Origin: Canna indica
Taxonomy: Eukaryota; Streptophyta; Magnoliopsida; Zingiberales; Cannaceae
Direction of reading: 5' to 3'
Assembly: GCA_034359265.1 (NCBI GenBank)
Contig: CP136890.1
Span: 126,501-190,500, forward strand
Length of the DNA: 64,000 bases
Shown here: positions 6,105-62,395 of the stretch, in pieces
Position numbering within the stretch: position 1 is the stretch's first letter
Layout of the letters: every line of letters starts with the position of its first letter
Notes under the pieces: generated by a model
What the model was told of the DNA's origin: nothing
The model's database searches: none
Seen by the model: the letters and a program-made list of their open reading frames with translations, nothing else
Made by a program: the position numbers and the translations under genes

Positions 6105-6230
6105 TAGTTAGGGTTTATAGTTTGGGTTTTGGGTTTTGGGGTTTAGGGTTTAGGGTTTAGGGTTTAGGGTTCAGGGTTTTTAGAGTTTTAGGGTTTTTAG
6201 GGTTTGGGGTTTTGGGGTTTAGGGTTACCA
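6105..6230 (+). repeat. Interstitial telomere-like array
   Basis: Perfect TTTAGGG units (about 6140-6172) are embedded in degenerate variants such as TTTTGGG, TTTGGGG and TTTTTAGGG. All are on one strand and total roughly 120 bp. This fits an old internal telomeric insertion, not a chromosome end, because unique DNA continues on both sides. Confidence 0.85.
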
Positions 6231-10013: not shown

Positions 10014-10122
10014 TTTAGGGTTTAGGGTTTAGGGTTTAGGTTTTAGGGTTTAGGGTTTTACGGTTTTAGGGTTTAGTGTTTAGGGTTTTGGATTTTGGGT
10101 TTTGGGTTTAGGGTTTTTTATT
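10014..10122 (+). repeat. Interstitial telomere-like array
   Basis: At least four perfect TTTAGGG units are followed by degenerate variants (TTTTAGGG, TTTTGGG). The strand is the same as in the arrays at 598 and 6105. Confidence 0.85.
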
Positions 10123-12399: not shown

Positions 12400-13238
12400 C
12401 TATCAGATAGACTTCTATTATGTGCATTGTTGCTATGTTGTTGATCATGATGATATACCATTGTTGCACTCTTGGAGTCGAGTTGCATGGTTGTTGTCGA
12501 CCTGGAGGCTACGGCCTCGGAGAGGACTTCGGTCCCGGACCATTTTAGTGCGGTACCCTCCAGACATGGGAGAGGGTATGGATATTGACTAGTCACTTTG
12601 GGCACCTTCGGGTGTAGGGATGTCGGTTACGTCATCCATTGGGCTACCTGCTTGGTAGGGGTAGTCGCGCGGATGTCGGATCCGCCGTCCATCGGGCTAT
12701 CTGCTTGGTGGGGGTAGTCGTGTCGCCGTTGGAGCGGACGGTTGACGCCACTCTACGGGTGGTAGAGTGCGGGGTTTTTACCCAACGGTCCACACGCTCG
12801 ATGATTTGGTCGATGTTGTGTAGAAGTAGGTGTGGAGCATTTGTTGTACATCTATCGTCTTTGACTGCATCTTAGGTCATATTGTTATTTATTGTTGAGT
12901 TAACATCTTATTCCTGTTGTTGACCATATTGTGGTACTCCGACTCAGCATTTTCGCTGATTCTTATTGTTATTGCTTCAGACTTGCAGGGGAGAGTTGTC
13001 GACTGATAGACCGAGGTGTAGATAGTCGGTAGATAGCAGGTATCTGGAATTCTAATATGGCGACAATTTTTGTATCTTGTCTTGCTTTGTCGTCTTTTGA
13101 TTCTAATGATTTTGGAGCTTCGTAAATATGTAATATTAAATACTCTATTCCGCTGCGTGGGTTTCGAGTCGCCCACTGTCGCGCGTCGGAAGGGGCCCGC
13201 CTTTGGGCGTGGGGGTGGACCCGAACCGGGGCGTGACA
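12400..13238 (+). repeat. Truncated 5' LTR of gypsy element 1
   Basis: The right end GGGGCGTGACA lies 8 bp before a primer-binding site, so it is the 3' end of a 5' LTR. The expected LTR start, TGTTATATTCTG as in the 3' LTR at 18248, is not found upstream, so only the R/U5-side part survives. The left limit given is approximate. GC content rises sharply at about 12480-12880, where several hairpins are packed. Confidence 0.7.
12554..12769 (+). repeat. Hairpin cluster within the 5' LTR
   Basis: Four inverted repeats lie in tandem: TACCCTC 12554-12560 with GAGGGTA 12572-12578; CATCC 12633-12637 with GGATG 12671-12675; CCGTCC 12685-12690 with GGACGG 12736-12741; CACTCTAC 12749-12756 with GTAGAGTG 12762-12769. 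The second and third share the loop phrase GGGCTA(C/T)CTGCTTGGT. Confidence 0.65.
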
Positions 13239-13258: not shown

Positions 13259-13380
13259 ATAGGAGTTAAGGTTATGTTAGGCTTAAGAATTCAGGTGTCT
13301 TACCTTAACGTTAATGTTGCATGGTGTAGGAGTTAAGATTGTGAGTTTTACCCAAATTTTTTTATTCTATTTGTAGATGG

Positions 13381-21498: not shown

Positions 21499-24400
21499 AG
21501 GGGCGGAGCCAATGTATTGGCGGGGTAATTGTCCCCCATGAGATTGGTCCCCACGAAAATGTATATTAGTATATTACTACATTTTTCTCTTGGAAATATT
21601 ATAAAATATTCTTTTGCCTATGTAATTGCCCCTCCCCCCCCATGTGCGGTTTCAAAGAGAATTTTTTATTTTGGCCCAAAATGAAAAAGACAAGCTGCCA
21701 TGTAAATTCCCATTAAGCCCAACACATAAGCCCACCAATAAAGGCCACTACATATTAAAAGATTTCTTTTGTTAAAAAAATTAATATTTTAAGTGTTCCA
21801 TGATGATCTTCAATTCATTCTTGAGCGGGAAGACAGAGAAAATACCCCATAGAACAGAACCTGAAACGTCAATGACTAGATGAAGAAGAGTGCCACGGTA
21901 GAGGGACGGAGGGAAAGATCAGATTGCAAGTAGAGAAGTAATGAAAGTTTTTGATGTCTGATCTGTCATTCTCTAATTTCTCATACCTCCTCATTGTCCC
22001 CAAAAGTCAAAACCCCACGATCACTTCAGCGCTTTAGAGCTTTTTCATAGGTCATGTGTTTTTGTGTCTGATTCATTGGAAATTCCTTGAGCTACTGGTG
22101 CTAAGCTTGAAATTGATTGGATAACTTGTTTTGTTCTCTAAGATAATGCTAGAAATTTCATAGCTTAATTTCCTCTTTCGGTGTGTCCAATTATTATATA
22201 ACAGCTCAGTCGATCATATCAATCATCAAGTTGGAACCTTTCAATAAGGCCGATCAAGCAAACGATATCAGATTCTTGCAAGGAAGGTTCAACGAAGAGA
22301 ACGAGGTGAGGCTCTCTCTCTCTAGCTTGTTCTTGTGTAGATATCTAGTGAGTAAAGAGTTTTTTGGGTGCTTTGTTTAGATTGATTTTTTTTTCTTGTG
22401 TAGATATGGATAAGTATCTCATAAAGAAGAAATCAATAGTAGAGGAAACATCAATGGCCAGAGCGAATGATGATTGCTCAAAGAGAAGACATGTGGAAAT
22501 CAATTTGGATGATCTCCCTTCGGATCTCGGGCTAAGGAAGAGAATTTCCGATTATCATCCTAATGATCGTGATAGGATTAGAAGGCATTGTTTACAACAA
22601 GGTCCGTGTCAACCGAAAGGACATGATTTTCCTCAAAAGAAATTTGGCAATATATTTCGGCGCTTTATTCCTAAGTGATTTGAGGAGCATAAATATTGGC
22701 TAGAATACACTATTGCAAAAGATGCTGCCTTTTGTTTGTGTTGCTATCTTTATAGGTCGGACATTGGAGCGCGAGCAAGTGGTGAAGTATTTATGTCGGA
22801 AGGATATACTAATTGGAAGAAAAAAGAAAAATTCAATGAGCATGTTGGAGGTCCGAATAGTGCCAATAACAAAGCTTGGAGAAGATGTGAAGATTTGATG
22901 AATCAACAACAACATATCCAATTTCCTTTTGTGAAACAATCGGATTATCAGCTATGTAGCTCTGTTTGACTGTTTCACTTGACTGCATTCGCTTTCTTCT
23001 ATCTCAAGGTTTGGCATTCCGTGGGCTCGATGAAACAGAAGAATCGCATAATCAAGGCAACTTTCTTCAGCTCCTCTTTTCTTGCTAGTCACAACGATGC
23101 TATAAAAAATGTTGTCTTGAATAATGCTCCAGGAAATATGAAAATGATAACACCTGATATTCGAAAGGATCTTCTCCGTGCTTGCGCTATGGAGACCACT
23201 AATGCTATTCTCCATGAGCTTGGAGATGAATACTTTGCTATCTTACTTGATCAATTTTGTGATGTTTCAGTCAAGGAACAAATGGCGGTTGCTCTCAGAT
23301 TTGTCGATTCGAAAGGGTGTGTTGTTGAACGTTTTCTTGGTATTGTTCATGTTAGTGACACCACCGCTTCCTCATTAAAAGTGGCTATTGAGGTTCTATT
23401 TCTCAAGCATAATTTGAGTTTGTCTAAAGTGCGGGGGCAAGGCTACGATGGGGAAAGTAACATGCGAGGTGAATTTAATGGACTCAAAATTTTGATCATG
23501 CAAGAGAATTCTTCTGCTTATTATGTTCATTGTTTTGCTCATCAACTTCAACTAGCTTTGGTTGACGTGGCAAAGAAAAAGCCGCAAGTTGCTGCATTTT
23601 TCAACTCGGTGGCTAGCATAACTACTCTTGTTGGAGTTTCATGCAAGCGTAGAGATCTTCTTCGAGAGAAGCAACTAAACAAAGTCATGGAAGCATTTGA
23701 AAATGATGGACTCTCAATGGATAAGGGTTCAAATCAAGAGAGAAGTCTTCAAAGAGGAGGTGATACACGTTGGGGATCTCATTATAGGTCATTGATAACT
23801 TTGACTGTCATGTTCTCATCGATCATGGAAGTTCTCCAAATCATTGAGAAAGATGACTCTACTACACATCAAAGAGGTGAAGCGTTTTCCTTATCGAGTG
23901 TTATGCCAACTTTTGAATTTGCGTTCATCTTGCACTTGATGAAGACTATCTTGGGAATCACGAATGAGTTATCTCTAGCATTGCAAAGGAAGGATCAAGA
24001 TATAGTGAATGCTATGGCTTTGGTTAAAGTGACAAAACAAAGTTTGCAAGATATGCAGAATGAAGGATGGGACTCTTTGATGAGTGAAGTATCTATATTT
24101 TGTGAAGGAAATGACATTGGTATCATAAATATGAATGATATGTTTGTAGCTCCGGGACGATCGCGGCAGAAAGGCAAAGCCTTGACAAACTTGAGTTATT
24201 TCCGGTATGAGCTTTTTAACAGTGTGATTGATTGGCAGCTTCAAGAACTCAACAGTCGTTTCAATGATGTGAACATAGATTTGCTTCTATGTGTAGCTTG
24301 CTTAAGCCCAAATGATTTTTTTGCGGCTTTTGATAAGTCCAAATTGACTCAACTCGCTCACTTTTATCCTTTGGAGTTCTCTGAGATTGATATTCAGTTG

Positions 24401-24880
24401 CTTGACAATCAACTTGAGACGTACATTCTTGATATGAGATCTCATGAAAAGTTCTCAAACCTAGTGACTATTGGAGATCTTTCTCAGAAGATGGTTGTCA
24501 CAAGAAAGCATATTGTGTATCCACTGGTTTATTTGCTTATGAAGTTGGTGTTGATATTACCAGTTGCTACTGCATCAGTGGAGAGGATTTTTCCAGGGAT
24601 GAAAATCGTGAAGAACCACCTTAGTAATATGATGGGAGACTCTTGGATGAACGATTGTTTGGTTACCTATATCGAGAAAGATATTTTCTGTAACATTGAC
24701 AATGAAAGAATCTTGAATAGTTTTCAGATTATGAGACTTCGGAAGGGACATTTGTAATTATCTAGTTTTTAATTCAATGAACTTCATATCTCTCTATCGT
24801 TGTTATATTTGATATAGTTTCATATATACGTTTATTTTCGTTTTATATTTTACCCCCCCTCCCCCCCCCGGACCAGGCTT
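21499..24880 (+). mobile_element. hAT-type transposon with TTF/DUF4371 transposase
   Basis: The left end CAGGGGCGGAGCCA is the terminal repeat typical of this hAT group in plants. The right side carries the usual C-run (TACCCCCCCTCCCCCCCC, 24853-24870) followed by GGACCAGGC. The expected inverted GGCTCCGCCCCTG is not present there, so the right end is truncated or diverged and the boundary is approximate. The element carries one broken transposase gene and ends about 140 bp upstream of the ATG10 start codon. No 8-bp target duplication is identifiable. Confidence 0.75.
22406..24757 (+). pseudogene. hAT transposase (zf-TTF, DUF4371, C-terminal dimerisation domain)
   Basis: The start at 22406 follows an acceptor (TTGTGTAG) and opens MDKYLIKKKS, as in plant 'zinc finger MYM-type 1-like' proteins. 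The TTF zinc-finger segment (KYWLEYTIAKDAAFCLCCYL) comes after a TGA at about 22676 where the family has Trp. A stop near 22967 and indels around 22940-23085 break the next segment. From 22979 a 592-residue open frame holds the DUF4371/RNase H-like core (LRFVDSKGCVVERFLGIVHV, RGQGYDGESNMRGEFNG, YYVHCFAHQLQLALV, GGDTRWGSHYRSL). The C-terminal hAT dimerisation region follows (HIVYPLVYLLMKLVLILPVA, TASVERIF, GDSWMNDCLVTYIEKDIF). The protein would cut and paste the element in the nucleus. The breaks make it non-functional. Confidence 0.9.
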
Positions 24881-29990: not shown

Positions 29991-30275
29991 TCATAAATAA
30001 TATTTTATTTCTTAGCAGGGGACCGTGGGCCCGAGTTAGCGCAGATTAGCATTGAGTCGCAGAATTTAATTCGGGTAAACTTTTAAATAAAAAAAATAGG
30101 AAAAATATAATTGTTTTATTTCTATGATTTAGCATACTAGGATGATAGAGGGTCCCGAGACGAGTTCAGCATTTCAATCAAAACTCAAATCGGAGTTAGA
30201 AAAGATTAGATACGAGCTAGTTTAGTCGATTAAGTTAAGCGGGGGCATTTTGGTCATTTGGACCAAACAAAAGCC

Positions 30276-30282
30276 TATAAAA
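30276..30282 (+). promoter_or_regulatory. TATA box of gypsy element 2 LTR
   Basis: TATAAAA within AAGCCTATAAAACAG. Its position in the first part of the LTR and the GC-rich leader after it fit an LTR promoter. Confidence 0.5.
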
Positions 30283-31410
30283 CAGAACCTGGGGCGTGTG
30301 GCCAGAGGTTTTGCCACACACCACCTGAGGCTCAAGAGGAGGAGAGGAAGAGGCACCGCCGAGTGGAGGAGGAGGAGTTTCGGTGCAGAATTTCGCAAGA
30401 TCGTTGACGTTCAACATAGGAAGACCCTTAGCTTCTTCTTACTTCCCGGTTTCTCCAAAAGAGGTGAGTGGATTAACCTTCTCTCTCCTTTTTTCTTCAT
30501 CAGCCATGCCGCCCCTATGTCACGGGGTTCTTGTCATTTTTCTTCGTGTTTTTAGTAAATCGAATTGACTAATCGCATTGAGGGTTTTCCCGTGATCGCA
30601 AAAATTCTATCGGATCGATTTTTGGGAAATTGGCCGCCCTTTTTCCTTGCTGTGCCGCCCCCTTGCGTTTTCAATTCTTGATGGTTTCTTTGTGGAATCT
30701 TCATGGTTGTTGAGGGTTCTTGGTGGTTGTTGGATATCTTGAGGAAAGGAAGGGTTTTGGGGAAGAACTAGGGTAGGTCGCCCCTTTTAGGGCCCTTTTG
30801 GTGCTCTAGGGTGGTCGGCCAATTAGGGGCAGCTTGGGGGAAAATAAAAATAGGATTTTTATACCTTAGCGACATACTTTAGGGTATATTAGATCTCTTC
30901 TACACTTTAGGAAAATTGTAGAGACATACAAGTAGGAAATCGAGTGCCCTAGAGACACCTAGAGACCCTAGAATCCTAGGACGACCTTAGGGTAAGCTGA
31001 CCCTTACGGAACCCAAGGGGGGTGAACCCTCCATGCCCCTAGAGCACTCGGGTAGAGGGGTAGGTCGGCCCTAGGGTACATGGCTAGGGGAGGGCTAAAG
31101 TCGGGCTTAAACCGCGTAGGAAAATTAGGAGGTGTTGTATTGTTTACATCTTATACATGCTTATTTTTCCTACGACGTTTGGAGGTGTTGTGCCTTAATT
31201 TCATGCTCATTGTGTACGTTGTGAATTCATGATTTAAGCATCATTATATGTGTGTGTGTGTGGTTGTGATGTATTGCGGGAGGAGGCGGAGGTGAAGGTA
31301 TGCCCTAGACATACCCTTGTTATCTATTGTGCACATAATTGTTATGCTCATTTATCTATATATGTACCTGCGTGTGTGATGTTGTGATGTGTGTGTTGTA
31401 TTTTCCGAAA

Positions 31411-31610
31411 GTCTCGCTGGTGGCGGGAAGATATGTCCCAAGGAGGCAGCGTTGGCCTTATTCCAAAAGTCTGACTAGTGCAGGGAGATCATACCCCAAG
31501 GAGATAGTCCGGAGATCCGAGCAGGTGAGGGGAACGTATGCCCCAACAGGCTAGCTCGGAAGAGCCAGTGTCGGTGAGGGGAGGGCATACCCCAATAGGT
31601 TGACACTGAG
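31411..31610 (+). repeat. Array of four hairpins with a common loop in the gypsy 2 LTR
   Basis: Paired arms are: CGCTG 31415-31419 with CAGCG 31447-31451; GACTA 31473-31477 with TAGTC 31505-31509; TCCGAGC 31516-31522 with GCTCGGA 31554-31560; CAGTGTC 31566-31572 with GACACTG 31602-31608. The loops share the pattern GTG(A/C)GGGGA...TATGCCCCAA.AGG, itself holding an inner G-run/C-run stem. Arms differ in sequence between units but remain complementary. Confidence 0.8.
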
Positions 31611-32380
31611 CTGGGTGGTAGTGCGGCGGCCACCTATCTACCTACCCTATGTGGCTACATGGGACTGATGGGTCCAAAGGTGATTCATGTGGATGATTGC
31701 ATTGAGCACATGGATGATTGCATGGAGCATATTATATGTGGTGGCATTTTCTGCAAGTTGCTATATTGTTGACGAGGATGATTGCACTGCTAAAATAAAC
31801 GCTCAAAAATAAAATTATGCTTTATGTTCTTATGCTTACCTGTATGCTTTTGATTATTTCACGATTGATGATGATATAGAGGATACGAGGACTATAGATG
31901 ATACGAGGACTATAGAGGATATGAGGATTGATTACTCACTAAGTCCTAGTTGGACTTACCCCTCATTCTGTTGTTTTGAAGCACCTGAGTTAGATCAGAG
32001 AGGTACCGGGGTGCAGTAGCGCGGCTTGTGGCGGCAGGACAGCGAGTCTCGTGACATGTCGTGGTTGAGAGGGATACCAAGTCCTTTTCCTTGATTCTTT
32101 TGAGTCGTTGAGTCACGTCGACTCGGTTTACGTGTTTCCACATTTTTATTACTTGAGATGTCTTGCTTAGTAATTGAACTTTTGAAACCGATTTGAACTT
32201 TAACCATTTATTGGGTTGGTGATCTAGGGTTTATTGAAATTAAACGTTTCATTTTAAATCCTTGAGTTATTATTAAATATTCAGGTCTAGTTTATGTGTA
32301 CTTGTGGTTTGAGTTGGGTTATGCTTTGGGGTACGTGGCGTACCCTGGTCGGTCATACTGGGTTTGTGGTATGACAAAGT

Positions 32381-32392
32381 TGGTATCATAGC
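32381..32392 (+). other. Primer-binding site of gypsy element 2
   Basis: TGGTATCATAGC differs from the initiator Met primer site TGGTATCAGAGC by one base. Confidence 0.75.
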
Positions 32393-32576
32393 GGATACGA
32401 CAATAGGATAGTTGGTATTGTATGGGGCATTACTAGTGTGTCATCATATGGTATATCCTAGTCACGAGATCGACAACTGAACCTGCGTACCAACGACGAT
32501 ACGTGTTTTCTTTGGTTAATTTTATTGTTGTGTATATGTTAAAATTGTGTGGTGCTTGCTTTCTTATTTAATAGCA

Positions 32577-32835
32577 ATGGAGACATATGATGATGCCGTG
32601 ATGAGTGGAAGCAGAAGTAACTCCGCTGGCAGACGAGGTCGAGGTCGAGGTCGCAGCCGAGGCATAGGCCGTGTTACCAGCCAGGTGGTTCAGGAGGAGG
32701 CAGCGCGAAATCCCAGGGTTGCACTGCTAGAGACCCAAGTGATGGAGCTGACCGAGGAACTTCGTAGAGAACGGGACGAATTCTGTCGAGAACGAAAGGA
32801 GTTCGGTAGGGAGCGAGAGGAGCTTCGTAAGGAGT
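32577..32835 (+). pseudogene. Gypsy element 2: N-terminal Gag segment
   Basis: It opens METYDDAVMSGSRSNSAG, then an RGRGRGRSRG tract and a charged helix with repeated RERDEFCRERKEFGRERE. This matches the N-terminus of plant gypsy Gag in composition. The reading frame is cut at 32835 by the solo LTR and resumes at 35647. Confidence 0.75.
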
Positions 32836-33482
32836 TGTCATGCCCAACTCAGGATCACGTGACCGACCAGGGTATACGTGCCTATACCCCGCAGTCTAAA
32901 CCATGCACATGCCAACCCAATCAAATAATATAGTGGAAAGAAATAACAAGTTTTATTTTAATGAAAAGTGAACCAAAACAAAATTTAATTCGAGTAGCTC
33001 AAATGAAACAAAAAGTGCGGAAAAACATTTTAAGTTCAACAGTTCAAAAGTTCAAATACAATAAGACCTGAAATAAATGACATGAATGCCCTTAGGGCTA
33101 CAACTCCAAATCAAGCTAATACAAGTGCATGACTACTACCAAAGAACTCGACTATGACCCTAACTAGGATTGCTATAAGATCATGCGGCTCCTCTGTCCT
33201 CCAGCGGCGCCAAGTGCATCTGACCGACCTCACCGGTCAGGCTCTGCAAAATAGAAATCAAATAACAACGGGTGAGTTCAAAGAACTCAGTGAGCGGTTC
33301 TACCAACCCCCACAATAAACATCACAGAGATAAGCAAGAATAACATCTATCTCTACAGGAGGTAAGTCACGAAGGTGTGACTAGCTAATAGGCCAACTGG
33401 CCACTACCCGCCCGAAGGCAACTAACACCCATACGGTGAAGAACAACAGGCCTAAGCCTACCATGCCCAAAGGCAACAACAC

Positions 33483-33805
33483 ATACTAGGATAATCGGGA
33501 AGGCCCTCCGAACTTATCCTAGTATACAAAAACTCGGGAGCAATCGGGAAAAGCCCTCCGAACTTGCTCGACGAGACGAGTAGGGACAATCGGGATTCGC
33601 CCATCCGAACTTGTCCCTTTAAGATATTATAGGAGTAATCGGGAAAGGCCCTCCGAACTTACTCCTAAAAGATATCACATGAATAATCGAGACCCTCCGA
33701 ACATATTCCTTAACACCATATCAGGAATAATCGGGTAGGCCCTCCGAACTTATCCCACGAGGCTGAACCAGAACAATCGGAAAAGACCCTCCGAAATTGT
33801 TCTGC
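33483..33805 (-). repeat. Tandem array of seven co-varying hairpins in the solo LTR
   Basis: Each unit has a nearly fixed loop (plus strand TCGGGAAAGGCCCTCCGAAC) between unique complementary arms: 33483-33494 with 33514-33525 (12 bp, ATACTAGGATAA); 33538-33543 with 33564-33569 (GAGCAA); 33582-33589 with 33611-33618 (AGGGACAA); 33630-33638 with 33659-33667 (TAGGAGTAA); 33681-33685 with 33704-33708 (GAATA); 33724-33730 with 33750-33756 (GGAATAA, one A-C mismatch); 33769-33777 with 33796-33804 (CAGAACAAT). All arms keep A-A next to the loop on the left and T-T on the right, while the outer bases differ freely. Another hairpin without this loop (AGGTTGG...CCAACCT) follows at about 33806. Confidence 0.9.
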
Positions 33806-35279
33806 AGGTTGGGAATTTGTCATCCAACCTCCCGGGCTTAGCCCGCAATCCGGCTCCTCCATGAGCCTCTCTGTCATTCATAAATATATGGCGCACCATG
33901 ACCTAAGTCATGACTCCCCTACGGTGTCTTAGGGGTGATCCTATTGGAAAGTGTCTCAACACTCCAAAACCCGACCCCAACTTCTAGACCCGTAATGCCA
34001 TGAACCCGTGTCGTTTTATTTCATACATACTTTATAAATTGGTTCATAACAGATTATGTTCACTCTTAACCCAATTTTAATTATGTAATTAAAATTTAGA
34101 TCACCAAGATTAGGGTTTTGTTTTAGCTTACTGCTCTATCCTGTACTAATGAATCTAACCCGAATCTAGTCTCCAAAGTGTTTCATATATTTCCAAATTA
34201 TGTTTTCTGATCGAAACGATAGGTTACACAACTATATTCGCAGAAACACACACACCACAGCAAACAAACTAAAATCAGCACAGATTCATCATCTCAGCAT
34301 AAAATTCCAACAACATACAACTTTCAGCATACTACGAAATAAATTCCAAAAATTAAGAAAAATTAACCCCTAAATTATCATTAGGATAGAATACTAATCT
34401 CAAGATTTAATTCACAGAAATCATACTTTTAATTAAGATTAACAAGAATCTACAACACTTAAATCAAGAAGCAAGCATTAAGATCAAGAACCCCCTTCTC
34501 AAGAATCCCTAAGGCATCAATACAAAGATCTTAATCCTACCACATGATTTTTACCCAAAAATCCCAGATTTAATTCTATGCATGCAATCCACAAATCAAG
34601 AACCCAAATTAGGAGAATAGATCAAGATTTGCATATCAAGGAAATAAGAAAACTCATTCGGGCTTTTCATCGAACACCTTGAGGGCGACTCCGGTTTCTC
34701 CCTTGGCTGAGCACCCCAAGGTTTTCCCTAGGTCTGCCGAGCCCCCTAGGGGAGAGATTCGGGTCTTCCCAAGCACAAATTCCGAGAATCATGACAAAAA
34801 CTCAAAGAATAAATCAAGAATAAAGCATAAATACCAAGCCGTCAAGAACGGCTTCAAGAATCCGATTAAAATTCCGAAGAGAGAGGATAAACCACTCACC
34901 TTAATTGGAAGAAAGATTAAAGAAGAAATCCCAGACGACGGCCCTCGAATCCAGCTTCAAAAGGGTGGCGGCTCGACTCAAGAAAATGGGACAAGGGTGC
35001 GACAGTTCACTCTAAGCCGCCGACTTGGAGAGAGGGAGAGAGGGGAAGGAGAGGGGCTGGCTTCAGCTGGCTCCTCTCGGCTCGGCTCCAAAGGAAAGGA
35101 AGGAGGAGAGGAAGAGAAAGAGGAAGAGAAAGCAGGCGGCTCGGCTCGGCTCTGGATGGCAGCGGCTCCAAGAAGAAAAGGGAAAGGGGGCTGGCGGCTT
35201 GGCTTGGCTTGGCGGCGGGCTCCCTTTCTCAATTCTTTGGGTGGCTCCAAAATAGAAGCCACAAGCCATGAGGAGGGGG

Positions 35280-35286
35280 TTTTATA
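35280..35286 (-). promoter_or_regulatory. TATA box of the solo LTR
   Basis: The minus strand reads GGGAGTATAAAACCCCC, a strong TATA context about 360 bp from the LTR start. Transcription would run leftward through the hairpin array. Confidence 0.55.
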
Positions 35287-35646
35287 CTCCCTCCTCAACC
35301 CTAACCCCTTAAACACCTTAATCCAAAATCTGCATCCATCTTAAGCCAAAACCAAATCCGCTAACCCGATAGACTTAATTAATTTAATTAAACATATTCT
35401 AATAAATCACAAGCATTTAATTAAATACACTCACATGAATATAATTAATAATTATGCACACACAACATCAAATTAAATAATTTTAACTACCCAAGCCTAA
35501 AATTTATAAATTCATATCCTACTTACCCGAGCTCACAAGTTCGCTCCGGACCATGAGTCGACTTGGCTCGACCACGAACTAGTCTGCTAGGCTGACAAAC
35601 ACACATACGAGGAAAAATAATAATTTTAAATATCTAGGATATTACA

Positions 35647-36600
35647 AGTGTGGGAGCTAGCGTATCAGCGAACCCCACATGTACCACTAGTGGCACTCGC
35701 AGAGACTGAGTCGGTCAAGCCGGTTCAGTCTAGATATGTGGAGGAGGTCCGATAAGAACCAGTGGTACGTAGCTCGTTGTACATAGATTTTGTGAAGCTG
35801 AAGCTACCAGTATTCACAGGCACGGATCAGGCAGTGGAGGTGACGACGTTCCTAAATGACTGCACAGAGTTATGCTCAGTCTTGGAGTGTTCCTCTGAAG
35901 CGATGGCGCACATCGTTGGGCTACAGCTTAGGGGCCCAGCGAAGGAGTGGCACCAGTCATGGAGGGCATTTCGGGGGACCCATACACCAGCCCCTACGTG
36001 GGGGGAGTTCTAGACGGCTCTCATTGAAAAGTACCTACCTAGGAATGTCCACGATAGGCAGGCTAGGTAGTTCGAATAGATTCACTAGACGGACACCATG
36101 ACGGTGTCGGAATACAAGATCGAGTTCACACGGCTATCCCGTTACCACCCATCTCTGGTGGTGACCGAGATGGACCGAGTGAGGCGATTTGTGGAGGGTC
36201 TGAGGGTATAGATTGGTAGGCTCATACATTACACCGAGGACACTATCTTTGTTCAGATGGTGGACAAGGCGATGCGAAAGGAGGCCATGGTACATACCGA
36301 TCGACAGGACGGACCAGCCCGAAAGAGGTTCAGGCAGTACCGCCAAGGGGACAGGCGCACCCAATCTGAGGGTGTCGGCCTTGGAACGGCGTGCCCGCAG
36401 AGCCTGGTCAGGGAGATTTCAGAGGTCGTGCACCGATGGGACCATCGACGGCTGCCCAGAGTACCATAGTACCAGAAGGATAGAGGAGCGATGCGCCAGA
36501 GTGCGAATAGTACGGGATGAGGCACAGAGGAGCGTGCTACAGTTCGAGTATCTGCTTTGGGTGCGGCCAATCATGTCACATTAGGAAGAACTGCCCTATA
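35647..36600 (+). pseudogene. Gypsy element 2: Gag core and zinc knuckle
   Basis: After the nested LTR the frame resumes WELAYQRTPHVPLVALAET and continues LKLPVFTGTDQAVEVTTFLN, GPAKEWHQSWRAF, LIEKYLPRNVHDRQAR and SEYKIEFTRLSRYHP, the Retrotrans_gag core. Stops lie at about 35752, 36013 and 36067-36087. The C-terminal CCHC knuckle CFGCGQSCHIRKNC (36553-36594) has its four ligands but sits in another frame, so indels lie between. Confidence 0.85.
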
Positions 36601-36938
36601 GGCAGTCAAGCAGCAACACCACCTAGAGGGAGAGCACCGATGTCGACAGCCTCAGTGGCGCAGTGGACTCAAACTCAGGGGACCGAACAACAACGCACAG
36701 CAGGCCCCGGGAGGCCTTTTGCTCGTGTCTTTGCACTGACTCTTGAGGGTGCAAAGGCGTCCAATGCAATAGTGACAGGTATAATCTCAGTTAGTTCGTT
36801 ACTTGCTTACACATTGTTTGATCCAGGTGTTACTCATTCATTCCTATCCGAGTTGCTGGCATTGAGGTTGGGAAAAGATAAGAGTTGGTTAGCTAAATCA
36901 TTAGCAGTGTCTACACCTACGACAGTACTATTATTGCA
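36601..36938 (+). pseudogene. Gypsy element 2: aspartic protease segment
   Basis: RPFARVFALTLEGAKASNAI is followed by LLAYTLFDPGVTHSFLSELL. This is the plant gypsy protease with the D-x-G-x-T-H-S-F motif (here DPGVTHSF, a common plant variant). The sequence stops being gypsy-like after VLLLQ, where Copia integrase text begins. Confidence 0.75.
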
Positions 36939-38795
36939 AGGACGGTCTAACTGATGCGGTCCATGCTTTGCTTTACTGATCTCCCGATTTCCTTTTGGGC
37001 ATATGCGCTTGAAACAACTATCTACCTTTTAAATATGGCTCCCACAAAGTCTGTCTCTGGTACACCATATGAGATATGGAGTGACAAGATACCAAGTCTG
37101 AGGCATCTGAAGATTTGGAGTTGCCCCGCATACGTTAAGAAATTAGAGTTAGATAAGCTTTATGCTAAATCAACCAGGTTTGTGGGGTATCCTAAAGAGA
37201 GTTTATGGTATTATTTCTACTCGCCAACTGAACAAAAGGTGTTTGTCAGTAGGCATGCCACTTTTTTAGAAAAAGAGTTTATCGAGGAAAGTGGGGGCGG
37301 GAGAGATGCTGAGCTTTATGAAGTTCATCAACCACAAGCAAAATCGCAACCACCCGTTGGAAAGTCCACTAGAAGAACCAATCATAAAAACCCTACCTCC
37401 CACCACTCTTCGAAGATCAGAGAGATTGTGTAGACAACCTGAAAGATTATTTCTGACCATTGAGAATGACCAGAAATTCATTGATCCGCAATCCTATGAT
37501 CAAGCAATCAAAGATGTTGATTGTAAATAATGGCAGGAAGCAATGCAATCCGAAATGGACTCTATGTTCACAAACAAAGTTTGTACTTTGGTTGACTTAC
37601 CCGAAGGAGTTATTCCTATAGGGTGTAAGTGGATCTTTAAAAGAAATATTAGAGCTGATGGCCAGGTGGAGACCTATAAGACTAGGCTAGTAGCAAAAGG
37701 TTTAACTCAAAGGCAAGGTCTTGACTATGATGAAACTTTTTTTTCTCCTATAGCCATGCTCAAGTCCATTAGGATAATGCTAGTCATTATTGCATATCAT
37801 GACTACGAGATCTGGCAGATGGATGTCAAGACTTCATTCCTCAATGGTGAACATGAGGAAGAGGTCTATATGACCCAGCCAGAAGGATTCGTGTCTCCGG
37901 TAGGACCGAAGAAGGTATGTAAATTGCAAAGATCCATTTATGGACTCAAGCAAGCCTTGAGGAGTTGGAACATCTATTTTGATGAGACAGTCAAAGAGTT
38001 TGCTTCATCAAAAATGTAGACGAACCTTGTGTCTATAAAAAGAGTAGTGGCAGCGCCGTTGTGTTTATTGTGCTATATGTCGATGACATACTGCTCATGG
38101 GGAATGATATTCCTCCAGTCAGTGAAAGCATGGTTATCCAAAAACTTCTCCATGAAAGACTTGGGTGAAGCATCCTACGTACTCGGTATTTAGATCTATA
38201 GGGATTAGTCTAGAAAGATGCTTGATTTCTCCCAGTCTCGGTATATTGATACTATGCTAAAAATATTTAGCATGGAAGGCAGTAAAAGAGGTTACTTGCC
38301 TATGAGTCATGGTATCACTCTTTCCAAGAAGATGTCTCCTAAGACACTTGAGGAGAGAAAAAGGATGAGCGAGATTCCTTATGCATCGGCAGTAGGATCC
38401 ATCATGTATGCTATGCTTTGCACTCGGCCTAATGTCGCTTATGCCCTAGGGGTAACTAGCAGATTTCAGGCAGATCCTAGAGAGGAACATTGGAAAGCCG
38501 TAAAGAACATTCGTAAGTACTTGAGAAGGACTAAAGATGTTCTCCTGATTTATGGTGGGTCGGATTTTAAACTAGAGGGCTACACAGATTCTAGTTTCCA
38601 ATCAGACCTGGTTGATAGTAAATCCATTTGTGGGTATGTATTTACTCTGAATGGTGATGCAGTATGCTGGAAAAGTTCCAAGTAAGGAACTGTGGCCGAC
38701 TCGGTGACAGAAGATGAGTACATCGCTGCAAGCAAAGCCGCAAAAGAAGGAGTGTGGATAAAGAAATTTATCTCTGAGTTGGGAGTCCTAGCGTT
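36939..38795 (+). pseudogene. Ty1/Copia pol fragment: integrase C-terminus, RT, RNase H
   Basis: It starts inside integrase (a broken RT.LM, then RSMLCFTDLPISFWAYALET, YEIWSDKIPSLRHLKIWSCP, FVSRHATFLEKEFI). The RT follows (IPIGCKWIFKRNIRADGQVE, MDVKTSFLNGEHEEEVYM, VCKLQRSIYGLKQALRSWN, and the catalytic YVDDILLMGND at about 38074). The Copia RNase H comes last (SAVGSIMYAMLCTRPNVAYA, EGYTDSSFQSD, DEYIAASKAAKEGVWIKKFI). Stops and frameshifts occur at 37431, 37528, 38017, 38190-38210 and 38683. Neither Copia LTR, gag nor protease is present. It abuts gypsy protease on the left and the AAGCC satellite on the right. Confidence 0.9.
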
Positions 38796-40345
38796 GCCCA
38801 ACCAAGCCAAGCCCAGTCAAATAGATAGGCTCAGCATGGCTTGGCTCGGCTTGGCTTTGTTGGGTTTAGCTAGACTCAGCTTGGCTAGGCTCGACTTGGC
38901 TCAACTAAGCTCAGCTTGGCTTTGCTCAATTGAGCTTGGCTCGATTTGTCTCACTTAGCTAAGCCCAGCCAAGCCATGCCAAGCCCAGCCAAGCCAAGCC
39001 AAGCCGAGCCAAGCTGCGCCTAGCCAAGACAACCTCACATCATGCGTAGAATTGGCTGGGCTGGGCTGGGCTTGGCTGAGCAACGCTAGGCTCAGCTTGG
39101 GTAGGATCGATTTAGAGAGGCTAAGCCGAGCCGAGCCGAGCTGAGCCTAATCGAGTCTTTGACAGAGCTGGTTCGAGCAAAGCTAAGCTGAGCCAAACCG
39201 AGCCGAGCCAAGGCAAGCCAAGCCAAGACAAGTCTAGCCAAGCTAAGCGTAGCCAACCCAAGCCCAGCCAAGCCAAGCTGAGTCAAGCCAATCCCAACCA
39301 AGCCAGCCAACCAAGGCAAGAGTTTAATTGCAAAAATAAATATATAATGAATTTTAAAAATTAGCAAAGCCCCACTAAAATTCTACTCTGTGAGTCGGTT
39401 TCAACTATGTGCAGTTTGCTGAATCAAGCCAAGTTGAGCAAAGCTGGTTCGAGCAAACCTAAGTTGAGCCAAACCAAGCCAAGCTCAGTTCAGCCAAGCT
39501 AAGCCAAGCTCAATCAGGCTAAGCCCAGCCAAGCCAAGTCAAGCCGAGCTAAGCCCAACCAAGCCAACCTCACATCATGCGTAAATTCTTAGGAATCATG
39601 ATTTTCCTAACTATTTTTCAAAAATTATTCTGACAGAACTGAAAATGGAGTTCATGATTTCAAAAAAAATTCTATGCATGATGTGAGGTTGGCTTGTCTA
39701 GGCTTGGCTTGGTTCAGCTTGGCTGGGCTTGGTTTGGATGGGCTTGGCTCGGCTTGGCTTGACTTGACTTGGCTTGGCTTGGTTGAGCTTGGCTCGACTC
39801 AGCTTGGCTGAACTGAGCTTGGCTTGGTTTAGCTCAAATTAGCTATGCTCGAACCGGCTCAGTTTAGCTTAGCTTGGCTCGAATTGGCTCATGTTGGCTC
39901 GGTTAGGCATGAACGGCTCGGCGTAGCTTAACAAATAGATAATCTAAGCCGAGAGGAGTGGAGCTGAGCCAAACCGAGCAAAGCTCAGTTTAGCCGAGCC
40001 GAGTCGACCCAAGCTCAGCCTAGCTAAGCCCAGCCAAGCCAAGACCAGCCAAGCCAAGCCAAGCCAAGCCAAGCCAAGCCAGCCCAGCCAAGCCAAGCCT
40101 AATCGAGTCTTTAACAAAGCCGGTTTGAGCAGAGCTAAGTTGAGCCAAACCGAGCCAAGCTCAGTTTAGTCAAGCCGAGTCGAGCCGAGCTATGCCAAGC
40201 TCAGCCTAGTTAAGCCTAGCCAAGCCAAAACCAGCTGAGCCAAGCCAACCTCACATCATGCGTAGAATTTTTTTCGAATTCATTTAAACTCCGTTTTCAG
40301 TTCTGTCAAATCCTTTGGAACCATGAGCCAAGTCAAGCCAAGCCA
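38796..40345. repeat. AAGCC pentanucleotide satellite with strand switches
   Basis: The tract consists of degenerate AAGCC/GGCTT units (variants AGCTC, AAGCT, GAGCC). It reads GGCTT at about 38828-38955, AAGCC at 38957-39310 and 39420-39565, GGCTT at 39685-39925, and AAGCC again at 39945-40345. The phrase AACCTCACATCATGCGTA marks block edges at about 39031, 39566 and 40248, and in inverted form at 39674-39690. Pieces of the 293-bp satellite are interleaved (39325-39415, 39590-39665). Confidence 0.9.
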
Positions 40346-43300
40346 AGTCAATTCCAGAAATAAAATATATAATGAATTTTAAAAATTAGCAAAGTCTCCC
40401 ACGAATATTCTACTCTACAAACCAGTTTCAACCATGTGTGGTTCGCTGAAAACGGACTCCGTATGAATTAGTTATGATTTTCCGAATCCGATATTGCTTA
40501 CAGAATTTTTCCAGTGCTCATTTTAACTCCGAATCTAGTTCTATCAAGTCCCCTGCGAGCATGATTTCTTGGCCATTTTACAAGACTGACTGCGTATTTT
40601 TCGGACGTCGTTTCATATTTTTCGTGCCTCCTGAAAGAGTTAAATTCCAAAAATAAAATATATAATGAATTTTAAAAATTAGTAAAGTGTCCCACGAATA
40701 TTCTACTCTGTAAGCCGTTTTCAACCATGTGCGGTTCGCTGAAAGCGGACTCCGTAGTTATGATTTTCCGAACTCGATATTACTTCTAGAATTTCTCCAA
40801 TGCTCATTTTAACTCTGAATCCAATTCTGTCAGGTGCGCTGCGAGCATGATTTTCCTAGCCATTTTACAAGATTGATTGTGTATTTTTTGGATGCAATTT
40901 CATATTTTTCGTGCCTTGTGAAAAAGTTAAATTGCAAAATTAAAATATATAATAATTTATAAAAATTAGCAAAGTGTCCCACGAATATTCAACTTTGCAA
41001 GGTGGTTTTAACCATGTATGGTTCACTGAAAATGGACTATGTATGAATTAGTTATGATTTTTCGAACTTGATATTGTTTTTAGAATTTTTCTAAAGCTCA
41101 TTTTAACTTCGAATCCAATTCTGTTAGGTCCGTTGCGAGCGTGATTTTCCTGGCCATTTTACAAGATTGATTGTGTATTTTTTGGATGCAATTTCATATT
41201 TTTTGAGTCTTCTCAAAAAGTTCAATTGCAAAAATAAAATATATAATGAATTTTAAAAATTAGCAAAGTATCCCACAAATATTCTACTCTGCAAGCCGGT
41301 TTAAACCATGTATAGTTCGCTGAAAGCGGACTCCGTATGAATTAGTTATGATTTTCCAAACTCGATATTGCTTTCAAAATTTCTCCATGGCTTATTTTAA
41401 CTCCGAATCCAGTCAGGTCCGCTGCGAGCATGATTTTCCTGGTCATTTTACAATACTGATTACGTATTATTCGAACGTCGTTTCATATTTTTCATGCCTC
41501 CTCAAATAGTTAAGTTACAAAAATAAAATATATAATGAATTTTAAAAATTAGCAAAGTGTGCCACAAATATTCTACTATGCAAGAAGGTTTCAACTATGT
41601 GCGGTTCGCTGAAAGCAGACTCCGTATAAATTAGTTATGATTTTTCAAATCCGATATTATTTCCAGAATTTTTGCATGGCTTGTTTTAACTTCGAATCCA
41701 GTTCTGTCAGGTCCGCTGCGAGCATGATTTTCCTAGTCATTTTACAAGACTGATTGCGTATTTTTCGAATGTCGTTTCATATTTTTCATGCATCCTCAAA
41801 GAGTTAAATTACAAAAATAAAATATATAATAAATTTTAAAAATTAGCAAATTATCCCACAAATATTCTACTCTGCAAGGCGGTTTCAACTATATATGGTT
41901 CGCTGAAAGCAGACTCCGTATGAATTAGTTATAATTTTTCGAACTCGATATTAATTCTAGAATTTATTCAGGGCTCATTTTAACTCCGAATCCAGTTCTG
42001 TCAGGCCCGCTGTGAGCATGATTTTCTTGGCCATTTTACAAGACTTACTGCATATTTTTCAGATGCAGTTTCATATTTTTTGTGTCTCCTAAAAGAGTTA
42101 ATTACAAAAATAAAATATATAATTATTTTTAAAAATTAACAAATTGTCCAACGAATGTTCTACTCTGCAAGACGATTTCAACCATTTGTAGTTCGCTGAA
42201 ATCAGACTCCGTATGAATTAGTTATGATTTTCTAAATCCGATATTACTTTCAGAATTTCTCTAGAGCTCATTTTAACTCCGAATCCAGTTCAGTCAGGTC
42301 TGCTGCAAGCGAGATTTTCCTGGTCATTTTACAAGATTAACTTTGTATTTTTCGAATGCAGTTTCATATTTTCGTGTCTCCTGAAAGAAATAAATTACAA
42401 AAATAAAATATATAATAAATTTTAAAAATTAGCAAAGTATCCCACAAATATTATACTCTGAAAGCCGGTTTCAACCATACATGGTTCGCTAAAAGCAGAC
42501 TCCATATGAATTAGTTATAATTTTTCAAACTCAATATTACTTTCCAAATTTATTCAGGGCTCATTTTAACTTTGAATCCAGTTCTGTCAGGTCCGCTGCG
42601 AGCGTGATTTTCTTGGCCATTTTACATGACTAACTGCATATTTTTCAGATACCATTTCATATTTTTAGTGCCTTCTGAAATAGTTAAATTGCAAAAATAA
42701 AATATATAATTATTTTTAAAAATTAGGAAAGTATCTCATGAATATTTTACTCTACAAGCCGATTTCAACCATATGTGGTTCGCTGAAAGCGAACTTCGTA
42801 TGAATTAGTTATGATTTTTCGAATCCGATATTTTTTACAGAATTTCTCTAGGGCTCATTTTAACTCTGAATCTAGTTCTATCAGGTCAGCTACGAGCATG
42901 ATTTTCCTGGCTATTTTACAAGACTAACTGCATATTTTTCGAACACCATTTCATATTTTTCATGTCTTTTGAAATAGTTAAATTACAAAAATAAAATATA
43001 TAATAAAATTTAAAAATTAGCAAAGTCTCCCACGAATATTCTACTATGCAAACCGATTTCAACCATTTGTGGTTCGCTCAAATCGGACTCCGTATGAATT
43101 AGTTATAATTTTTTGAATCGGATATTAATTCTAGAAATTCTCCAAAGCTCATTTTAACTCTGAATCCAGTTCAGTCAGGTCCGCTGCAAACGCGATTTTC
43201 TTGGCCACTTTACAAGACTCACTTTGTATTTTTCGAACGCAGTCTCATATTTTCATGCCTCCTAAAAGCGTTAAATTATAAAAATAAAATATATAATGAA

Positions 43301-43740
43301 TTTTAAAAATTAGCAAAGTGTCCCATAAATATTCTACTCTGCAAGTCGATTTCAACCATGTGCGGTTCGCTGAAAGCGGACTGCATATGAATTAGTTATA
43401 ATTTTTCGAATCCGATATTACTTCTAGAATTTATTCAGGGCTCATTTTAACTCCGAATCTAGTTTTGTCAGGTACTCAGGTCCGCTGCGAGCGTGATTTT
43501 CCTGACCATTTTACATGTCTGACTGCGTATTTTTCCAACATCGTTTCATATTTTTTGTGCCTCCTGAAATAGTTAAATTACAAAAATAAAATATATAATA
43601 ATTTTTAAGAATTAGGAAAGAAACCCACGAATATTCTACTCTGCAAGTCGATTTCAACCATATGCGGTTCGTTGAAAACGAACTACATATGAATTAGTTA
43701 TAATTTTTCAAATCCGATATTTCTTACAAAATTTCTACGT
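40346..43740 (+). repeat. 293-bp satellite array, about twelve monomers
   Basis: The anchor AAAATATATAAT recurs with its preceding T at 40361, 40654, 40941, 41235, 41524, 41818, 42111, 42404, 42698, 42992, 43285 and 43588. Spacing is 287-303 bp and mostly 293-294. Each monomer carries CTCTGCAAGCCGGTTTCAAC, GGTTCGCTGAAAGC, TTCTGTCAGGTCCGCTGCGA and TTTTACAAGACTGACTGCGT, with 10-20 percent divergence. There is no coding potential. The last monomer fades at about 43740. The length resembles some plant satellites, but I cannot say whether this array is centromeric. Confidence 0.93.
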
Positions 43741-44824: not shown

Positions 44825-45281
44825 TCACAAGCTGCTCTCTTCTCCTTTTATGATATGATCTCCACTTGTATGAATATCGATGTCGTTGCGTTGATCATTA
44901 GTACCTGAAAAGATGTTGGTGCACGTCGACCATGGCGGAGGATAATTAGGCGGTGCAGCCTGCACCATGGACGACGACGACGACGACGAAGCGTGATGGG
45001 ACGTTGTCAATGGGTCTCCTCCACTGTATAAGTTATTAGGAGGAAGGGGCAAGCCCATGTTGGCATAGCGGAGGAGGTGGGCGTTGGCGGCATCGAGCTC
45101 CTTCTGAAGCTTTTGGAGGTGGCGTTGGAGGACTGAGATGGCACTGACGCAGCCGTAGACGGGGTCCTTCACCCGGGCTTCCGCCTCGTAGGCCAACGAG
45201 TTGACGGCGTCCTCCCGCTGGTGAGGCAGCAACTCGTTGAGCAGCTTGGCCACATTGCTGGCACCGAAGGGCAGGAAGCTA
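44825..45281 (-). CDS. LOB-domain (LBD/AS2-like) transcription factor, 3' exon only
   Basis: The frame encodes the C-terminal half of the LOB domain: the GAS block FGASNVAKLLNELLPHQRED, then AVNSLAYEAEARVKDPVYGC and the leucine-zipper-like coil SVLQRHLQKLQKELDAANAH. A Ser-rich tail ends GEESSL. LBD proteins are plant-specific DNA-binding factors acting in organ-boundary and lateral-organ development. The domain text is closest to AS2/LBD6- and LBD25-type members. The exon seems to start after an acceptor (CGCACGCAG) at 45282; an ATG further up at 45337 gives unrelated residues. The N-terminal CX2CX6CX3C zinc finger should lie in an upstream exon, but none is seen before the MITE at 45371 or as far as 47.5 kb. 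Either exon 1 is displaced or this is a gene fragment. Confidence 0.8.
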
Positions 45282-45370
45282 CTGCGTGCGGCGAGAAACA
45301 CTGGATCTATGACACCAATTTCGGTCACTTTATGCACTATAGTATCTAGTATCTAGAAATTTCGGTCACC

Positions 45371-61902: not shown

Positions 61903-62381
61903 TGTTAGAATATTTTTATTTATATTCTATATTTTCATTCTTCATATGTGGGCTACAATCAATTGTAATGTTTTGATTTAATAAAAACGGGTTTGATCTT
62001 ATGATTCATTATTGAGATGCTTGTTAGCTCATGTGATCTTGATCCATGTGATTTGAGCTTGAAACACTTAGTCATGATTGATGTGATTAATCAAGTGTAG
62101 GCCCGATTAATGAAGCCCGTGATGGACGGACCCATATAATCAGTTATAAATAGAGGCTAGGTCCCCTCGATACACCGTGTGGAAAAACCCTAGCTCATAG
62201 TTGCTTTCCCCATCAAAAGCAGAGCATTTTAGGCGGTGTTGAGGAGGAAGACCCAGCTTTCCTTGGAGATCCAGAAGTTTGTTCCGCTGCAAATATGTCG
62301 TCATCAAGTAAGATCTTATCTTACTAATTTATTATGATATTCTTATATTCATGAAATACTTGTTGAAAGATTTGTCTTACA
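61903..62381 (+). repeat. 5' LTR of a Copia element (479 bp)
   Basis: It begins TGTTAGAATATTTTTA and ends GTCTTACA, followed two bases later by a primer site. The 5-bp target would be TCCTC on the left. The 3' LTR lies outside the window. It is inserted in the RST1 exon ending here. Confidence 0.8.
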
Positions 62382-62383
62382 AT

Positions 62384-62395
62384 TGGTATCAGAGC
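62384..62395 (+). other. Primer-binding site of the Copia element
   Basis: TGGTATCAGAGC, complementary to initiator tRNA-Met, two bases after the LTR end. Confidence 0.9.

What the first reader, a model, noticed from the sequence alone, without database searches (positions are those of the whole stretch)
33483..33805. Seven tandem hairpins with a constant loop and co-varying stems in a plant LTR
Seven units share the loop core TCGGG..GGCCCTCCGAAC, but their stem arms are different in every unit (for example ATACTAGGATAA, AGGGACAA, TAGGAGTAA, CAGAACAAT). The other arm is the matching complement in nearly every position, five units perfectly. Simple duplication would copy the arms. Random drift would destroy pairing. 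Differing yet paired arms mean either compensatory selection on structure or a generating process that writes a new arm and its complement together. The array lies downstream of the LTR TATA box, so it should be in the RNA. Possible roles are RNA dimerisation or packaging, blocking small-RNA targeting, or long-leader translation control.
Basis: seen in the sequence. Interest (0 to 1): 0.88.

Follow-up and report, generated by a model that had tools for sequence, protein, structure and literature searches.

The report
Matched-stem hairpin belt in plant LTRs
In this likely plant DNA, two jumping-gene ends each carry a row of hairpin-forming repeats whose loops stay alike while their stems differ yet still match, and a third carries a looser cluster of them; the rows lie in what is predicted to be an intron, so they would mark only the uncut copy of the RNA, likely as its packaging label.

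Summary
Seven tandem units at 33483-33805 share a loop core, and 50 of 56 inner arm positions are Watson-Crick paired; 2 of 5,040 arm re-pairings, the true one included, do as well. The LTR's sense strand is minus (TATA box at 35286), so the array lies about 1.5 kb downstream of it. The arms are diverged copies of one arm, changed mostly by A-U/G-C swaps, not written anew. New here: a second LTR (about 30003-32376, +), alignable to the first only in short stretches, has its own four-unit array with a different constant loop and again matched, different stems. A third LTR (ending 13238) has a hairpin cluster with three C(UNCG)G tetraloops. The first two LTRs share the rare splice-donor word AGGTGAGTGG. 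The LTR1 and LTR3 elements have acceptor-like sites just before the presumed gag ATG. The arrays would then sit in a leader intron and occur only in unspliced, genomic RNA. My best reading is a psi-like identity or packaging signal kept by compensatory selection. Stem repair by template switching is not excluded, and strand evidence is mixed. No copies outside the window could be examined.

The parts
32836..35646 (-). LTR2: the LTR that holds the array; TG...CA ends; sense strand minus; apparently a solo LTR inside another element
   Evidence: Sequence; its 3' end shares CCCTGGTCGGTCA...GGYATGACA with LTR1; 5-bp target duplication not found (GGAGT against AGTGT)
35278..35289 (-). TATA box of LTR2 (GAGTATAAAACC)
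34892..34901 (-). predicted splice donor AG|GTGAGTGG of LTR2
   Evidence: This 10-mer occurs twice in the window counting both strands: here and in LTR1; blastn local match of LTR1 and LTR2 around it
33769..33804 (-). hairpin unit 7 (first in the sense RNA)
33723..33757 (-). hairpin unit 6 (imperfect arm)
33679..33710 (-). hairpin unit 5 (short loop, imperfect arm)
33630..33667 (-). hairpin unit 4
33582..33618 (-). hairpin unit 3
33536..33571 (-). hairpin unit 2
33483..33525 (-). hairpin unit 1 (12-bp perfect arms)
33366..33475 (-). six further small inverted repeats picked by eye, one a C(UUCG)G tetraloop hairpin
   Evidence: Located; fold of 33290-33482 in sense only z -1.5, 7 of 100 shuffles as good
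33273..33289 (-). hairpin TGAGTTC-TTT-GAACTCA, 27 nt before an acceptor-like CAG (AG at 33245-33244)
   Evidence: Aligns with the LTR1 hairpin; pairs counted by eye: 7 of 7 in both, 2 compensatory; positions
30003..32376 (+). LTR1: second LTR of like plan (5' end uncertain), TATA 30276, followed by a primer site
30462..30471 (+). predicted splice donor AG|GTGAGTGG of LTR1
31413..31608 (+). four-unit hairpin array of LTR1 with a different constant loop and different, paired stems
   Evidence: Units 31413-31453, 31471-31511, 31516-31560, 31566-31608
31940..31958 (+). hairpin TAAGTCC-TAGTT-GGACTTA in LTR1
32381..32392 (+). primer binding site TGGTATCATAGC (tRNA-iMet type; label recalled)
32573..32574 (+). 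predicted splice acceptor AG, two bases before the presumed gag ATG (32577)
   Evidence: T-rich tract; top 0.93% of all AGs by a simple home-made score
12440..12990 (+). hairpin cluster of LTR3: C(UNCG)G hairpins at 12505, 12524, 12603; two-copy 53-bp tandem 12618-12720
13375..13376 (+). predicted acceptor TTTTTTTATTCTATTTGTAG directly before an ATG in the LTR3 element
   Evidence: Top 0.28% of all AGs by the same score

Best explanation
The array is a row of seven inverted repeats with a shared loop and different but matching stems, predicted to fold as RNA hairpins, in what is likely a Ty3/gypsy-type plant LTR, and it is predicted to lie in a leader intron, so that only unspliced (genomic) RNA would carry it, where it likely serves as a psi-like identity or packaging signal. 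Shown: the array; its covariation; a second array of the same plan in LTR1; a hairpin cluster in LTR3; a shared donor word in LTR1 and LTR2; and acceptor-like sites before the presumed gag ATG in the two elements that keep that region. Inferred: splicing from the donor to the gag acceptor. In the LTR1 element this would remove about 2.1 kb with 44 ATGs, the array and the primer site. The short-leader product would be the Gag mRNA and the uncut RNA the genome. Untested: that Gag or a host protein reads the repeated loop. In this view the stems hold each loop up. They need only pair with themselves, and unlike stems limit mispairing between neighbours, so they drift by compensatory change while the loop is held fixed.
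For: Covariation: LTR2 94% of stem cells paired, 11 double-change cells, covariation score above all 500 shuffles. LTR1 87%, 7 double-change cells, score above all 500. Own-arm against cross-arm pairing: 2 of 5,040, and 1 of 24, the best possible, for LTR1 with fixed-length flanks outside cores set by eye. LTR1 and LTR2 align only in short stretches, yet both have such an array in the 3' half of the LTR and a compensated hairpin after it (pairs counted by eye). Local-fold z (span up to 50): LTR2 -3.8 and LTR3 -3.9 in sense, 0 of 100 shuffles each; two control LTR stretches -0.5 and +0.5. LTR3 has 3 C(UNCG)G hairpins in sense and none in antisense; 0 of 3,000 shuffles have 3 (motif chosen after seeing it). 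Double changes are mostly the transition type: 9 of 11 in LTR2, 5 of 8 in LTR1. AGGTGAGTGG occurs in the window only in the two LTRs; with an assumed start 30 nt after TATA, exon 1 has 0 ATG in both (158 and 356 nt), against 44 from donor to gag. In HIV-1, the stretch from the major splice donor to gag was found essential for packaging (PMC7599994, passages). Barley BARE keeps separate RNA pools for translation and packaging (PMC3735527, passages including the abstract).
Against: No transcript, splicing, packaging or probing data. Antisense strands fold further below their shuffles than sense strands in LTR2 (z -7.0 against -3.8) and LTR1 (-2.6 against -1.8); LTR3 is the reverse (-2.8 against -3.9). 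In the unrestricted sense fold some middle units pair across units. The LTR1 array folds no better than shuffles unrestricted (z +0.27, 116 of 200 as good) and only weakly with the span limit (belt z -1.8, 4 of 100; array alone z -1.8, 5 of 100). Two of five covariation measures for LTR2 do not exceed shuffles. The invariant A-C apposition next to the inner stem would be a G-U pair in antisense RNA. The lack of ATG in exon 1 is not beyond its dinucleotide content (both ATG-free in 909 of 5,000 shuffles), and an ATG lies 13 nt before the assumed start of LTR2. The LTR1 acceptor-like site inside the LTR is weak (top 2.97%). In Rous sarcoma virus the packaging signal is in spliced and unspliced leaders alike (PMC7599994, passage). 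Seven and four units cannot carry a tree-based null.
Confidence: 0.4

Rival explanations
1. The stems are kept paired by mutation, not selection: during DNA replication or reverse transcription the growing strand folds on a hairpin and copies one arm from the other, which corrects stems and leaves the loop unchanged. The array would be a by-product of hairpin-prone tandem repeats.
For: Monttinen and Loytynoja report that template switching can make and repair stems, and suggest that hairpin-primed events fix the stem and keep the loop (PMC8794818, abstract and Discussion read). This fits constant loops with differing perfect stems. Their two-step path through G-U can also give transition-type changes. 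Reverse transcriptase switches templates readily (general knowledge).
Against: Changes at neighbouring pairs occur in independent combinations (alignment) and mostly as transitions, where block copying would carry runs. It does not by itself explain why LTR1 and LTR2 hold arrays at a like place with unrelated loops, nor the C(UNCG)G loops in sense orientation only in LTR3. None of these excludes it.
Confidence: 0.25
2. The belt is a selected RNA structure with another task: helping or limiting splicing of the leader intron, aiding nuclear export of unspliced RNA, or stopping ribosomes on the genomic RNA.
For: Position between predicted donor and acceptors; a compensated hairpin 21 nt (LTR1) and 27 nt (LTR2) before acceptor-like sites; a structured plant pararetrovirus leader is reported to recruit export factors (PMC12786077, passages).
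Against: Splicing itself is only predicted; a repeated constant loop points to a repeated ligand more than to a plain barrier (inference).
Confidence: 0.2
3. DNA-level dyads: the repeats bind a DNA-binding protein or form cruciforms and act on transcription.
For: Sirevirus LTRs carry clustered palindromic motifs (PMC2829016, passages). The pairing evidence in LTR2 is not specific to the sense strand.
Against: Those motifs are described as upstream of the TATA box, most with a CGG-CCG core. Here the array lies about 1.5 kb downstream and the stems vary, which would ruin a sequence-specific dyad.
Confidence: 0.08
4. Chance or alignment artefact.
For: Few units; the LTR1 arms are short.
Against: Permutation, slide and shuffle controls.
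Confidence: 0.02

Closest known systems
Retroviral psi packaging region (HIV-1 SL1-SL4)
   Same: Several local stem-loops between the (predicted) major splice donor and gag, so that part would be present only in unspliced RNA
   Different: Here the loops are one repeated sequence, the row has up to seven units, it lies within the LTR hundreds of bases before the primer site, and no Gag binding is known
BARE separate RNA pools (barley Ty1/copia)
   Same: Idea of separate RNAs for translation and packaging, with splicing involved
   Different: BARE uses two TATA boxes and a 104-nt intron near the gag/pol boundary; here one predicted leader intron in a likely Ty3/gypsy-type element
Sirevirus palindromic repeated motifs
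   Same: Clustered dyads in a plant LTR
   Different: Upstream of TATA, mostly a constant CGG-CCG core, likened to transcriptional activators
Template-switch-made stems (Monttinen and Loytynoja 2022)
   Same: Perfect stems changing together with the loop preserved
   Different: A mutational process, not a function; not shown for tandem arrays in LTRs in the sections I read

Membership tests
Retroviral-type psi packaging signal | Located between the major splice donor and gag, absent from spliced RNA | tested here: inconclusive
   Sequence positions fit in the LTR1 element; LTR2 is apparently a solo LTR without its own gag; splicing is only predicted
Retroviral-type psi packaging signal | Cluster of local stem-loops | tested here: met
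   By prediction: (LTR2 strong, LTR1 weak by energy)
Retroviral-type psi packaging signal | Needed for packaging; bound by Gag/NC | not testable with these tools
   Wet-lab only
Ty3/gypsy LTR retrotransposon of the long-LTR chromovirus kind (Tekay/Del; label recalled) | TG...CA LTR ends | tested here: met
   LTR2: TG...CA read directly; the 5' end of LTR1 is uncertain
Ty3/gypsy LTR retrotransposon of the long-LTR chromovirus kind (Tekay/Del; label recalled) | Primer site and retroviral protease | tested here: inconclusive
   Primer sites follow LTR1 and LTR3; RVP_2 in ORF 36517-36954 of the element around LTR2 (E 5.8e-12); LTR2 itself has no internal part in view
Ty3/gypsy LTR retrotransposon of the long-LTR chromovirus kind (Tekay/Del; label recalled) | RT before integrase, chromodomain | not testable with these tools
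   The pol pieces seen next in the window are copia-type (RVT_2), so this element's own pol is not in view
Sirevirus palindromic motif cluster | Repeated palindromes with one core upstream of TATA | tested here: not met
   Array is downstream of TATA with varying stems
Any Rfam family | Match at the gathering score | tested here: not met
   0 matches in the whole window, both strands

The most novel reading that the evidence does not exclude
Long-LTR plant Ty3/gypsy elements mark their genomic RNA with an intron-borne belt of hairpins: one loop repeated many times for the reader protein, on stems that are deliberately unlike so that each folds alone. Each family has swapped in its own loop while keeping the plan, a fast-evolving genome tag that would keep related elements from packaging each other's RNA.
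Probability: 0.27. Interest if true: 0.82.

Novelty: new variant of a known kind. Interest (0 to 1): 0.6.

Why it matters
How plant LTR retrotransposons choose genomic RNA over mRNA is little known. A repeat with constant loop and covarying stems, in a predicted leader intron of two diverged LTRs, gives a concrete, easily tested candidate signal. It is also a natural test case for whether paired stems are kept by selection or by template-switch mutation.

Tried and rejected
Looking for more copies: pattern scans of viral contigs (0 stretches, 10, 0) and bacterial/archaeal genome contigs (17 stretches). Each of the 27 stretches held a single match, as chance would give; I treated all as chance and did not study them. 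A locus search with a 93-aa protease piece confirmed none of 53 pattern stretches, and a protein search with the 145-aa ORF scored none of 45 candidates. Rfam: none at the gathering score. Covariance models R1 and R2 find only their own 7 and 4 units in the window.

Fold z-scores alone do not single out the array: in a scan of 798 windows of 160 nt it ranks tenth by the better strand (33521-33680, z -5.4 on +, -1.7 on -). Strand evidence from G-U against A-C states is small. In the two arrays there are 5 against 1, or 3 against 0 if only pairs with a Watson-Crick majority count. With three differences that I read by eye in the LTR3 tandem copies it is 8 against 1 (binomial 0.02), chosen after the fact. 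I do not rely on it.

The + strand as sense was rejected: LTR end, TATA and donor all read on minus. The claim that exon 1 avoids ATG beyond composition was rejected. An array of the same design inside LTR3 was not proven: its 53-bp copies are tandem duplicates and its tetraloop hairpins are few. The hairpin of LTR3 at 12941-12962 is offset from the other two and was not counted as the same one. My first score of the LTR3 in-LTR acceptor was taken one base off; rescored, AG at 12979 is in the top 0.93% and AG at 12987 in the top 11.6%. The first test of LTR1 arms used arms chosen for pairing and is replaced by that.

Papers: ten searches; two returned nothing and three listed only part of their hits. 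Among the titles and abstract beginnings shown I saw none describing such an array. Absence from print is claimed only for those listings. PMC10578108 (passages) treats stem-loops and tandem repeats from transposable elements in enod40 RNA, not LTR arrays; PMC2832683 (passages) gave nothing relevant.

Full report
What was checked. The window at 33483-33805 holds seven copies of a core near CCCTCCGAAC, spaced 44-50 nt, all in one orientation and, at one mismatch, nowhere else in the 64 kb. Taking as arms the bases outside TCGG...CCGAAC, 50 of 56 positions over the inner 8 are Watson-Crick. The stems run 12, 6, 8, 9 and 8 bp without a break in units 1, 2, 3, 4 and 7; units 5 and 6 are imperfect. 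All 5,040 ways of re-pairing 5' arms with 3' arms were scored, and two, the true one included, reach the observed value. Duplex energies give 2 of 5,040 on + and 3 of 5,040 on -. On the aligned units 94% of 84 stem cells pair and 5 of 12 pairs carry double changes in 11 cells. Percentage paired, cells with double changes and covariation score beat all 500 shuffles; the number of pairs with a double change (70 of 500 as high) and the number of further pair types (401 of 500) do not. Sliding the partner by up to 3 columns leaves at most 53% paired. These shuffles ignore relatedness of units, as the tool warns. A detector with no motif built in (neighbouring 5-bp hairpins with like loops and unlike arms) reports nine pairs, all in units 1-4 of this array, and none in 20 shuffled windows.

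How the arms differ. They are variants of one arm (sense, by eye: RGGANNAA). In LTR2, 9 of 11 double changes exchange A-U with G-C in the same orientation; in LTR1, 5 of 8 (which counts against the commonest Watson-Crick pair, so its LTR1 total differs from the 7). So duplication followed by paired change explains them, without a process that writes new arms.

Where it lies. The LTR is 32836-35646 (LTR2), but its sense is minus. The minus strand has TATAAAA at 35286, and its 3' end shares CCCTGGTCGGTCA and GGYATGACA with the end of another LTR (LTR1, +, ending 32376), which is followed by a primer site TGGTATCATAGC at 32381. After LTR2 the window continues with an ORF holding a retroviral protease (RVP_2) and, by eye, a CCHC knuckle. 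LTR2 therefore appears to be a solo LTR nested in the LTR1 element. A 5-bp target duplication was not found. The ORF at 32547-32933, which I take for the start of gag by position only, has no Pfam match. That the window is from a plant is inferred (telomere-like TTTAGGG arrays, element types).

A second and third case. LTR1 has four units at 31413-31608 with a different constant loop (a GGG(G)...CCC(C) inner stem within fixed flanks) and stems CGCTG, GACTA, TCCGAGC and CAGTGTC, each with its complement. With flanks of fixed length outside cores set by eye, the true pairing is the best of all 24 re-pairings at three flank lengths, although single 5' arms sometimes pair better with unit c than with their own partner. 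87% of 46 cells pair, 5 of 12 pairs have double changes, and 0 of 500 shuffles reach the covariation score. By energy the LTR1 array is unremarkable (z +0.27 unrestricted; -1.8 with span limit). LTR3 (ending 13238, primer site 13247) has a hairpin cluster at 12440-12990 with z -3.9 under the span limit (12440-12800 unrestricted -2.3, 1 of 100), three C(UNCG)G hairpins in sense and none in antisense (0 of 3,000 shuffles have three; the motif was chosen after seeing it), and a two-copy 53-bp tandem of hairpins. The whole window has 8 such tetraloop hairpins of 4 bp or more on both strands together. LTR2 has one after its array (141 of 3,000 shuffles have one) and LTR1 none. Downstream of the arrays LTR1 and LTR2 share a hairpin, TAAGTCC/GGACTTA against TGAGTTC/GAACTCA, with 7 of 7 pairs in each and two compensatory differences, counted by eye.

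A leader intron. The best local matches of LTR1 and LTR2 include one that holds AGGTGAGTGG. This 10-mer occurs twice on both strands of the window, in these two LTRs. Between an assumed start (TATA + 30) and this donor there is no ATG in either LTR (158 and 356 nt); in LTR2 an ATG lies 13 nt before the assumed start. From donor to the presumed gag ATG in the LTR1 element there are 44, and 44 from donor to LTR end in LTR2. The lack of ATG is within what dinucleotide content gives, so it is not proof of selection. Just before the presumed gag ATG stand T-rich AGs in the LTR1 element (32573) and the LTR3 element (13375), in the top 0.93% and 0.28% of all AGs by a simple score of mine. Acceptor-like AGs inside the LTRs score top 0.18% in LTR2, 2.97% in LTR1 and 0.93% in LTR3 (12979). 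A splice from donor to gag ATG in the LTR1 element would remove 30464-32574, with the array and the primer site. This is a prediction. The 5' part of LTR3 with its donor was not found.

Mechanism. If this splicing occurs, the spliced RNA is a short-leader Gag mRNA that lacks the primer site, and the unspliced RNA, burdened with many upstream ATGs, is the genome. A row of identical loops present only in the genome RNA is placed as HIV-1 psi is: residues from the major splice donor to the gag start codon were found essential for packaging (PMC7599994, passages). The same review notes that Rous sarcoma virus carries its packaging signal in spliced and unspliced leaders alike, so the logic is not universal. 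Barley BARE separates RNA pools for translation and packaging (PMC3735527, passages). Unlike stems would let each hairpin fold alone: own partners are best for 5 of 7 sense 5' arms in LTR2, and in the span-limited sense fold I see all seven units as local hairpins, while the unrestricted sense fold pairs some middle units across. Whether Gag binds the loops is untested.

The main rival. Template switching during replication can make and correct stems while sparing the loop (PMC8794818, abstract and Discussion). Independent transition-type changes and the recurrence of the plan in LTR1 and LTR2 lean towards selection, but with seven and four units I cannot exclude it. Antisense strands folding further below their shuffles than sense strands in LTR2 and LTR1 also count against a simple sense-RNA story.

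Limits. Novelty is claimed only within the listings of ten searches of open papers. The lineage label (Tekay/Del) and the tRNA-iMet label are recalled.

Noticed in passing
window 12440-12990: LTR3 hairpin cluster with three C(UNCG)G tetraloops within 110 nt and a two-copy 53-bp tandem whose differences I read by eye as keeping pairing through G-U in sense
   Followed up: partly
window 36517-38700: Protease ORF of a likely Ty3/gypsy-type element is followed directly by Ty1/copia-type pieces (RVP_2, then SH3_retrovirus and RVT_2): nested or recombined elements
   Followed up: no
window 38826-40250 and 40350-43736: Long stretch of AGCCA/TTGGC pentamer arrays followed by about 11.5 copies of a 294-bp tandem repeat
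   Followed up: no
window 6108-6226 and 10014-10116: Interstitial telomere-like TTTAGGG arrays
   Followed up: no
window 61905-62395: By eye, a likely Ty1/copia-type LTR ending just before a primer site TGGTATCAGAGC at 62384
   Followed up: no
window 44825-45337 (-): ORF that by eye resembles a plant LOB-domain protein (label recalled, not searched)
   Followed up: no
window 22979-24757 (+): ORF with DUF4371 and hAT dimerisation domains: a hAT-type transposase
   Followed up: no
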